A stretch of DNA of 46,091 nucleotides. Origin: an uncultured Granulosicoccaceae bacterium. GTDB taxonomy: Bacteria; Pseudomonadota; Gammaproteobacteria; Granulosicoccales; Granulosicoccaceae. Where the stretch lies: NCBI GenBank assembly GCA_938003855.1, contig CALKXD010000067.1:1-46091 (forward strand), in the 5' to 3' direction. Under the pieces are notes generated by a model. It was given only the letters and a program-made list of their open reading frames with translations, had not been told where the DNA came from and ran no database searches. A program made the position numbers and the translations under genes. Shown piece after piece: positions 21,696 through 23,096 of the stretch. The stretch's first letter is position 1, and every line of letters begins with the position of its first letter.

Positions 21696-22094
21696 TTACA
21701 GCGCTGCTTGTAGCAGTGGTTCCAGTGCTGTTGCGCTGGTTCCAGCGACGTTCCGTGCCACCTCTTCACCGGCTTTGAAGGTGATCAGGGTACTACGGCG
21801 GGTAACGTTGAGTTCGGCGGTGATTAAATCACCTTTGAACGTATCCCAGTCCACTTTGAACCAGGTGATTGCCTGGTAGTCGGCATTGCTATCGATTAGT
21901 GCACTCACGGTGCGCTCTTGAGATCGACAGGTGCCTCACCACGGGGCGTAGAAGTCGAGCAAAAACGGCTCACCACTCGCAAGCGCCTGCTCGTAGGCTT
22001 CGCGGGTGAATTCCACTTGCTTCGCATCGGCAGCCTGCACAGCGCCGGTAACTAGTGCGAGAGCGGGAATAGCCAGAAACTGGCGTCTTTTCAT
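21696..22094 (-). CDS. Candidate exported selenocysteine thioredoxin (in-frame UGA as Sec at codon 53)
   Basis: One continuous frame of 132 codons carries a single in-frame UGA (21938-21936, codon 53). It begins with AGGAG, then ATG at 22094. The N-terminus MKRRQFLAIPALALVTGAVQA is a signal peptide with cleavage expected near A21-A24. A thioredoxin core follows: EPFLLDFYAPW, then UGA, then GTC, giving W-U-G-T-C where relatives have W-C-x-T-C. Downstream are SQERTV, a VDWDTFKGDL segment, NVTRRSTLITF with its Thr-Leu turn replacing the usual cis-Pro region, and AGEEVARNVAGTS. The coding pattern is uninterrupted on both sides of the UGA. A SECIS-like fold lies just after it. Alternatives are a nonsense-mutated gene or a base error (TGC to TGA). 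It would act as a periplasmic thiol-disulfide or peroxide-coupled reductase. Confidence 0.7.
21889..21938 (-). promoter_or_regulatory. Candidate bacterial SECIS element
   Basis: Numbering from the base after the UGA, CUGUCGAU (6-13) can pair with AUCGAUAG (40-47), making 8 bp with one G-U. Inside it, AG-C-GCAC (20-26) pairs with GUGC-A-CU (32-38) with one C/A mismatch, closing a five-base loop CGUGA (27-31). The loop starts 26 nt after the UGA and has G as its second base, as in the general bacterial SECIS pattern (loop G, about 16-37 nt from the UGA). Folding was done by eye, without energies. Confidence 0.5.
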
Positions 22095-22138
22095 AAGCTG
22101 AGTGTCTCCTTTTAAAAACTGGTGATCGTGGAGGTTTC

Positions 22139-22289: not shown

Positions 22290-23096
22290 CTAACCGGCAA
22301 AGGCTTTTTCCATAACAAAACTGCCCGGTCGACTGTTAGAACCCTCTGTCAGGCCTGCTGCCTCGCAAATAACCTTCAGATCTTTGTTTAATCCCAGTGA
22401 GCCGCAAATCATCACGCGGTCGGTGTCGGGGCTGAGCGCCGGTACGTTCAAATCGCTGAACAGTTGTCCACTTTCCATCAAATTGGTGATGCGGCCGCGC
22501 GGGCTGAAGTCTTCCTGCGTGATTGACGGGTAGTAGCGAACTTTGCCTTCCGCATCGTCGCCAACCAGTGGATCCTGTGGCAGATTGCGAATCAGTTGCT
22601 GGCTGTAGCCAAGCTCTTCTATTTGCCGGCAAGTGTGAGTGAGGATGATTTCATCGAAGCGCTGGTAGAGTTCCGGGTCGCGGATTAATGAGGCGAACGG
22701 CGCGACACCGGTGCCCGTGGCGATCATGTAGAGGCGCTTGCCGGGCAGTAACGCATCCAGCACCAGGCTGCCCACTGGCTTGCTTTGTACGATAATGCTG
22801 TCGCCCACTCTGATGTGCTTCAGGCGGGAAGTCAGCGGACCGTTCTGTACCTTGATCGAGTAGAACTCCAGCTCGTCGTCCCAGGATGGGCTGGCGATTG
22901 AGTAAGCCCGTTGCAGTGGTCTGGCATCGTCATTGGCAGGCAGGCCGATCATGGTGAATTCACCGGAGCGGAAGCGCAAACTGTCCGGGCGGGTGACACG
23001 GAAGGAAAAGAGTCGATCGTTCCAGTGCTTGATCGCGGTGACGGTCTGGGCGTCCGGAAATTTACGGGCTGACGTATCTTTATTATTGCTTGACAT
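22290..23096 (-). CDS. fpr: Ferredoxin-NADP reductase
   Basis: The protein has 268 residues. The FAD-binding barrel includes RAYSIASP, and the pyrophosphate region has GPLTSRL. The NADP domain has ATGTGVAPFASLI and MICGS, and the C-terminus FVMEKAF resembles the FVxEKA ending of bacterial Fpr proteins. It moves electrons between NADPH and ferredoxin or flavodoxin in the cytoplasm and is often tied to oxidative-stress defence. It is on the same strand as the thioredoxin, 195 bp upstream of it. That gap contains a separate candidate promoter, so co-transcription is not certain. The divergent lar operon starts about 317 bp away and may need low-potential electrons if its LarE carries a cluster, which is inference. 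Confidence 0.92.
   Translation of the reverse strand: MSSNNKDTSARKFPDAQTVTAIKHWNDRLFSFRVTRPDSLRFRSGEFTMIGLPANDDARPLQRAYSIASPSWDDELEFYSIKVQNGPLTSRLKHIRVGDSIIVQSKPVGSLVLDALLPGKRLYMIATGTGVAPFASLIRDPELYQRFDEIILTHTCRQIEELGYSQQLIRNLPQDPLVGDDAEGKVRYYPSITQEDFSPRGRITNLMESGQLFSDLNVPALSPDTDRVMICGSLGLNKDLKVICEAAGLTEGSNSRPGSFVMEKAFAG

What the first reader, a model, noticed from the sequence alone, without database searches (positions are those of the whole stretch)
21696..22094. Signal-peptide thioredoxin with in-frame UGA at the first active-site Cys: candidate selenoprotein
A minus-strand gene of 132 codons reads as a full exported thioredoxin, with signal peptide, LLDFYAPW, the active site and the RRSTL turn. 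It has just one interruption, a TGA that falls exactly on the first Cys of W-C-x-x-C (W-UGA-G-T-C). Coding is intact on both sides, and the gene has its own AGGAG and a plausible promoter. A random nonsense change would be unlikely to hit the one residue that selenocysteine most often replaces. Automated annotation would split this gene or drop half of it. Sec thioredoxin-like proteins are known as a class, but an exported U-G-T-C member beside fpr and lar genes is worth describing.
Basis: partly seen in the sequence, partly recalled or inferred. Interest (0 to 1): 0.9.

Follow-up and report, generated by a model that had tools for sequence, protein, structure and literature searches.

The report
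Exported thioredoxin built with selenocysteine
A small exported redox protein in an uncultured marine bacterium has a UGA 'stop' codon exactly at its reactive site, and comparison with its relatives shows that this UGA is almost certainly read as selenocysteine; selenium thioredoxins are known, but this exported, membrane-reductase-linked family with an altered active-site loop appears undescribed.

Summary
Window 21696-22094(-) encodes a 132-aa thioredoxin with an export signal and one in-frame TGA, at the first active-site position (W-U-G-T-C). It is not an error or a pseudogene: all but one of 13 congeners carry homologues (50-82% identity), each with exactly one TGA at this codon, and so do two further genera (22 distinct genes). 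Elsewhere the position is Cys. Right after the UGA, ten codons are nearly frozen at synonymous sites and form a hairpin with a CGUG[A/C] loop (bacterial SECIS). The genome has tRNA-Sec(UCA), selA, selB and selD. A GrdB/PrdB-like UGA gene lies beside its selA and has the same SECIS loop. Machinery tracks the UGA form across 48 genomes.

Most likely function (inferred): a Tat-exported periplasmic selenothioredoxin reduced by a CcdA/DsbD-type membrane protein, which co-occurs with it (30/33 genomes with the thioredoxin, 0/15 without) and is adjacent in relatives, but unlinked here.

Sec-thioredoxin (PF00085, UxxC) is already known. New are the exported, CcdA-linked subfamily and Ser in place of the cis-proline. 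One gain of Sec and two reversions to Cys fit the tree. No selenium chemistry was tested.

The parts
21696..22094 (-). Sec-thioredoxin gene (132 aa, TAA stop)
   Evidence: Reads through with TGA=U; PF00085 5.5e-13; AF2 model pLDDT 87 with a Trx fold
21936..21938 (-). in-frame UGA, codon 53, read as selenocysteine (first position of WUxxC)
   Evidence: Same codon is TGA in all 22 distinct Sec-form genes and TGC/TGT in the Cys homologues
21898..21916 (-). bacterial SECIS apical hairpin: AGCGCAC-CGUGA-GUGCACU, loop 26 nt 3' of the UGA (the middle C-A mismatch becomes C-G in five relatives)
   Evidence: Codon invariance; pair counts, with G-C to A-U double change at columns 24/40; same loop in the selenoprotein gene next to selA
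22032..22094 (-). twin-arginine-type signal peptide MKRRQFLAIPALALVTGAVQA
   Evidence: R3 R4 L7 invariant and F6 near-invariant in 17 sequences; RRx[FLIVM][LIVMA] in 22/22 Sec forms. The cleavage site is by eye
21792..21794 (-). Ser101 codon, at the position of the thioredoxin cis-proline (RRSTL against canonical xIPTL)
   Evidence: Invariant in A1; Ser in 92 of 96 homologues
22106..22110 (-). AGGAG ribosome-binding site
   Evidence: Sequence
22290..23096 (-). co-oriented upstream FAD/NAD(P)-binding reductase-type gene (fpr-like), 195-nt gap; conserved neighbour in the genus, no direct link shown
   Evidence: PF00970/PF00175; same neighbour in 10 further loci of the genus

Best explanation
The gene makes a selenocysteine-containing, Tat-exported periplasmic thioredoxin-like reductase. 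SelB carrying Sec-tRNA-Sec(UCA) is recruited by a SECIS hairpin 26 nt downstream of the UGA and inserts Sec at the N-terminal, attacking position of the WUGTC site (supported by comparative evidence). The folded protein is exported through its twin-arginine signal (inferred). In the periplasm its Sec/Cys pair reduces a disulfide or oxidised-thiol substrate and is recharged with cytoplasmic electrons through an unlinked CcdA/DsbD_TM-like membrane protein (inferred from adjacency in relatives and phylogenetic co-occurrence). Sec replaced an ancestral Cys within one clade of Granulosicoccaceae, probably with two later reversions to Cys.
For: (1) The TGA lies at the same codon in 22 distinct genes of three genera and is Cys in homologues elsewhere. 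(2) Codons u+4 to u+14 show mean excess codon identity of 0.61 against 0.08 in the rest of the gene, permutation p about 5e-6. They fold into a stem with a CGUG[A/C] loop, and four genes carry a paired G-C to A-U double change. (3) tRNA-Sec, selA, selB and selD are in the genome. (4) In the order, SelA is found in 15/17 genomes with the UGA form against 1/16 with the Cys form only, and tRNA-Sec in 16/17 against 2/16 (Fisher p 2e-6 each). (5) A GrdB/PrdB-like gene with a UGA lies between selB and selA in this genome and carries the same CCGUGAG SECIS loop. (6) A DsbD_TM/CcdA-like gene lies near the thioredoxin gene in 44 of 80 fetched loci and next to it in three Sec genomes (G016, G017, G018), and occurs in 30/33 thioredoxin-positive against 0/15 negative genomes. 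It is present in this genome at G000:C7 (L159:4842-5561) with NPC and SPC cysteine motifs. (7) The twin-Arg signal is in 22/22 Sec forms.
Against: No protein or selenium data exist. One UGA-bearing genome, G016 (84% complete), shows neither SelA nor tRNA-Sec. CcdA is not linked to the gene in this genus and was not found in G005 and G012, which have the thioredoxin. The window copy alone folds no better than shuffles over 49 nt (z 0.41), so the SECIS case rests on comparison. TIGR01068 thioredoxin is not reached (48.9 against 96.8 bits) and the cis-Pro is absent, so the exact redox role is open. Tat rather than Sec-translocon export was not computed with a dedicated predictor.
Confidence: 0.88

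Rival explanations
1. The UGA is a nonsense mutation or sequencing error in a Cys thioredoxin (pseudogene).
For: None beyond the stop itself and the presence of Cys homologues in other lineages.
Against: The same TGA is in 22 distinct genes from independent assemblies. dS exceeds dN downstream of it wherever dS could be computed. The SECIS codons are frozen and the Sec machinery is present.
Confidence: 0.01
2. UGA is read as another amino acid, through a genome-wide code change or near-cognate suppression to Trp or Cys.
For: The position is a Cys in homologues, so Cys insertion would also give a working protein.
Against: UGA ends genes here: several relatives of this thioredoxin and the GrdB-like gene of this genome end in TGA. 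The recoding comes with a SECIS, selB and tRNA-Sec. Some Cys misinsertion at a Sec codon cannot be excluded by sequence.
Confidence: 0.03
3. It is a selenoprotein, but its electrons come from elsewhere (the neighbouring fpr-like enzyme, or a full-length DsbD) and the CcdA co-occurrence is indirect.
For: In this genus the conserved neighbour is the fpr-like gene, not CcdA. CcdA was not found in G005 and G012. DsbD-like ORFs also occur in these genomes.
Against: An fpr-type enzyme without an export signal would be cytoplasmic, while the thioredoxin is exported. The CcdA association is strong across Alpha-, Beta- and Gammaproteobacteria.
Confidence: 0.2
4. It is an oxidase or isomerase (DsbA- or PDI-like) rather than a reductase.
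For: Exported Trx folds include oxidases and isomerases; weak PDI-profile similarity.
Against: The partner is of CcdA/DsbD type (a reductive pathway) rather than DsbB, and the protein is a bare single Trx domain with no DsbA insertion or dimerisation domain.
Confidence: 0.1

Closest known systems
Sec-containing thioredoxin (PF00085, UxxC; WP_010956703.1), listed among experimentally verified prokaryotic selenoproteins in PMC13188914 and PMC9312934
   Same: Thioredoxin domain PF00085 with Sec at the first position of the UxxC site
   Different: Here with a twin-Arg export signal, Ser for the cis-proline and a CcdA-like partner; below the TIGR01068 thioredoxin cut-off. Whether the listed representative is cytosolic was not checked (PMC5094351 not held)
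Trx-like 2 / 'thiol:disulfide interchange protein' selenoproteins (cd02953 or PF13098, UxxC) of PMC2398784 and PMC13188914
   Same: Trx-like domain of the DsbD-type reductive route, UxxC
   Different: Assigned to other domain models; sequences could not be compared here, so overlap is possible
Surface thioredoxins Etrx1/Etrx2 with CcdA proteins (Streptococcus pneumoniae, PMC3914529)
   Same: Extracytoplasmic thioredoxin-fold reductants studied together with CcdA
   Different: Cys-based lipoproteins with the described partner MsrAB2; the substrate here is unknown
Thioredoxin-like protein Trxlp of Edwardsiella (5zf2, 5zpv; PMC6636751)
   Same: Closest solved structure (37% identity, TM-score 0.89 by target) and the same Ser-Thr in place of Pro-Thr
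   Different: Cys form; described as a secreted effector, a role not implied for the window protein
Tat-exported selenoproteins FdnG/FdoG of Escherichia coli (own knowledge)
   Same: Precedent for Sec insertion followed by Tat export
   Different: Molybdenum formate dehydrogenases, unrelated fold

Membership tests
Bacterial selenoprotein (UGA-decoded) | in-frame UGA at a conserved redox position, Cys in homologues | tested here: met
Bacterial selenoprotein (UGA-decoded) | SECIS hairpin immediately downstream with a G in a small apical loop | tested here: met
   same loop in the second selenoprotein gene
Bacterial selenoprotein (UGA-decoded) | selA, selB, selD and tRNA-Sec(UCA) in the genome | tested here: met
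Bacterial selenoprotein (UGA-decoded) | selenium in the purified protein | not testable with these tools
   needs mass spectrometry or 75Se labelling
Canonical thioredoxin (TIGR01068/TrxA) | PF00085 domain with WCxxC (here WUxxC) | tested here: met
   5.5e-13; motif
Canonical thioredoxin (TIGR01068/TrxA) | curated equivalog cut-off of 96.8 bits | tested here: not met
   48.9 bits
Canonical thioredoxin (TIGR01068/TrxA) | cis-proline before the active-site-facing Thr | tested here: not met
   Ser101 invariant in the genus, Ser in 92/96 homologues
CcdA/DsbD-dependent extracytoplasmic thioredoxin | export signal | tested here: met
   RR-x-F-L signal conserved; by sequence only
CcdA/DsbD-dependent extracytoplasmic thioredoxin | linkage or co-occurrence with a DsbD_TM/CcdA protein | tested here: met
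   near the gene in 44 of 80 loci, adjacent in three Sec genomes; 30/33 against 0/15 genomes
CcdA/DsbD-dependent extracytoplasmic thioredoxin | electron transfer from CcdA to the thioredoxin | not testable with these tools
   needs redox trapping in a mutant

The most novel reading that the evidence does not exclude
A previously undescribed selenium-based periplasmic reducing branch: a CcdA-type membrane reductase feeding a Tat-exported selenothioredoxin whose cis-proline is replaced by Ser, gained once in Granulosicoccaceae and twice reverted to Cys, in genomes where neither a Sec-FdhA nor a Sec-SelD was found to explain why Sec decoding is kept (a GrdB/PrdB-like selenoprotein is the other tenant).
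Probability: 0.5. Interest if true: 0.6.

Novelty: new variant of a known kind. Interest (0 to 1): 0.5.

Why it matters
It adds an exported, CcdA-linked subfamily to the known UxxC selenoproteins and gives a clear example of Cys/Sec exchange on a small tree, with Sec and reverted Cys forms in one bacterial family. PMC1794560 proposed that Sec decoding is kept by Sec-FdhA or Sec-SelD. In this genome SelD is a Cys form and no FdhA passed the TIGR01553 cut-off, so this group is a test case for that rule. Practically, standard gene calling would cut the protein at codon 52 or drop it in every genome of the group.

Tried and rejected
Single-sequence folding of the SECIS was inconclusive; only the comparison showed it. 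A covariance-model search of the own genome with the Trx SECIS found only the window copy (4.9e-17; next hit E 1.8). It missed the GrdB/PrdB-like SECIS, whose UGA-to-loop spacing is 9 nt shorter, so it cannot be used to claim 'sole selenoprotein', an idea I held briefly and dropped. The G018 oxidoreductase ORF in L167 was checked for a Sec-SelD fusion and was not one. Sigma-70 promoter scan: no site upstream of the gene. A class-wide search (369 genomes) found no UGA form outside the family, only Cys forms. The fpr-like neighbour as reductase was set aside because of compartment. A literature search for CcdA plus selenoprotein found nothing on point, and the Sec-Trx biochemistry paper was not held.

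Full report
What is there. Window 21696-22094 on the minus strand reads as one 132-residue protein interrupted by a single TGA at codon 53 (21938-21936), followed by a TAA stop. Residues 27-126 match Pfam Thioredoxin at 5.5e-13. The TGA falls on the first residue of the W-x-G-T-C active site. An AGGAG stands 11 bases before the ATG. No sigma-70-like promoter was found upstream by a consensus scan, so the 'plausible promoter' is not supported.

It is conserved, so it is not an error. A search of the genus (14 genomes, this one included) found homologues in all but G011 of the other 13. Several genomes have two copies, and G008 has them in tandem. Every copy carries exactly one in-frame TGA. Translations line up with U at one column and 28 invariant columns, that one included, spread over both sides. 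In the order (48 genomes of one family) 17 genomes carry the UGA form and 16 carry only a Cys form. Outside the family only Cys forms were found, in Rhodobacterales, Rhizobiales, Betaproteobacteria and scattered Gammaproteobacteria. The nearest named relative is 'Chromatiales bacterium (ex Bugula neritina AB1)' (81% identity, L046); others are Granulosicoccaceae MAGs.

There is a SECIS. Between genomes that differ at many synonymous sites elsewhere in the gene, codons 57-66 are almost frozen: Gln59, Arg61, Thr62 and Val63 each use one codon in 17 of 17 sequences. Mean excess codon identity is 0.61 there against 0.08 elsewhere, permutation p about 5e-6, the smallest value that 200,000 shuffles can give. 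This stretch folds into a stem with a CGUG[A/C] loop, 26 nt after the UGA. Across 20 distinct sequences 88.6% of pair cells are standard, more than in any slid control. One pair shows a G-C to A-U double change in four sequences, and a C-A mismatch in the window copy becomes C-G in five relatives. One covarying pair is modest support; the synonymous invariance is the strong part. Cys homologues lack the frozen sequence.

The machinery is there and follows the UGA. The genome has tRNA-Sec with a UCA anticodon, selA, selB and selD. In the order SelA is found in 15/17 UGA-form genomes against 1/16 Cys-only ones, and tRNA-Sec in 16/17 against 2/16. G016, an 84% complete genome, is the one UGA genome with neither. 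These genomes are related by descent, so the Fisher values overstate the independence of the counts.

An internal positive control. On contig C130, between selB and selA, there is a second gene with an in-frame TGA...NTVCLLPV-U-PNCTRAVS... (L200:7772-8935). It is GrdB/PrdB-like (TIGR04483 1.7e-25, below the equivalog cut-off; PF07355 2.3e-6, above its cut-off), and the same gene was found in the sel-gene regions of G017, G018 and G041. Its hairpin, GCGC-CGUGA-GCGC, has the same loop as the thioredoxin SECIS. Two unrelated genes of one genome thus share the presumed SelB-binding loop. SelD here is a 727-aa oxidoreductase-SelD fusion with Cys (HCAGCGSK), not Sec. No genome of the order passed the TIGR01553 formate dehydrogenase cut-off; other FdhA types were not searched. 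PMC1794560 reported that every Sec-decoding bacterium then known had Sec-FdhA or Sec-SelD; this group looks like an exception, subject to those limits.

What it probably does. AlphaFold2 gives a confident thioredoxin fold (pLDDT 87) with a disordered N-terminus. The best solved match is the Edwardsiella thioredoxin-like protein 5zf2 (37% identity). In 92 of 96 homologues, Sec and Cys alike, Ser stands where thioredoxins have the cis-proline. The N-terminus is a twin-arginine-type signal in all 22 Sec forms and 45 of 74 Cys forms. Clustering of neighbours showed one recurrent partner: a roughly 237-aa DsbD_TM/CcdA-like membrane protein, in 44 of 80 loci. In three Sec genomes (G016, G017, G018) it lies next to a UGA thioredoxin. 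In the window's own genome it is elsewhere (G000:C7), but co-occurrence is nearly perfect: 30/33 genomes with the thioredoxin and 0/15 without (Fisher p 7e-10). I therefore infer a periplasmic reductase recharged through CcdA, comparable in layout with the pneumococcal Etrx-CcdA system (PMC3914529). The substrate is unknown. The fpr-like and lar neighbours are conserved only in the genus.

Evolution. In a 96-row tree all 22 Sec forms fall in one supported clade (99/96) that also holds three Cys forms. Three changes are needed, compatible with one gain and two reversions; the short alignment leaves inner forks unsure. G041, one of the probably reverted genomes, still has selA, tRNA-Sec and the GrdB-like selenoprotein.

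What is known already. Sec-thioredoxin with UxxC under PF00085 is listed as an experimentally verified prokaryotic selenoprotein (PMC13188914, PMC9312934), and UxxC Trx-like families are common in marine metagenomes (PMC2398784, PMC1088965). The kind is therefore known. The exported, CcdA-linked subfamily without cis-proline was not found described in the library searched and has no NCBIfam model above cut-off. It may lie unrecognised in the GOS Trx-like sets. I rate it a new variant of a known kind: it works like a selenothioredoxin, but it fails two tested features of the canonical thioredoxin family (the TIGR01068 cut-off and the cis-proline).

Shown, inferred, untested. Shown by comparison: conserved UGA, SECIS constraint, machinery, co-occurrence. 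Inferred: Sec identity at residue 53, Tat export, CcdA as donor, reductase role. Untested: selenium content, activity, substrate.

Noticed in passing
L200:7772-8935 (-), G000:C130; also L202, L205, L206: Second UGA-containing gene, GrdB/PrdB-like (motif UPNC), between selB and selA in this genome, with the same SECIS loop CCGUGAG as the thioredoxin.
   Followed up: partly
L044:340-2523 (G000:C19): selD is fused to an NAD(P)/FAD oxidoreductase (727 aa) and carries Cys, not Sec; no TIGR01553 FdhA over cut-off in the whole order, so what keeps Sec decoding here is an open point.
   Followed up: partly
L015:1501-2506 (G008:C44): Two UGA thioredoxin genes in tandem, diverged from each other (WUPTC and WUGTC); several other genomes also hold two unlinked copies.
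   Followed up: no
L061 (G041), L062 (G038), L104 (G039): Cys forms nested among Sec forms: likely Sec-to-Cys reversions; G041 keeps selA and tRNA-Sec, the other two show neither.
   Followed up: partly
L159:4842-8398 (G000:C7): In this genome the CcdA-like gene lies next to a sortase-like ORF and a 713-aa VIT/VWA-like ORF (by eye from sequence); whether this linkage is conserved was not checked.
   Followed up: no
L002, L003, L004 (tRNA-Sec sub-threshold hits in G000): Sub-cut-off matches to the tRNA-Sec model (32-46 bits), probably ordinary tRNAs with long variable arms; not examined.
   Followed up: no
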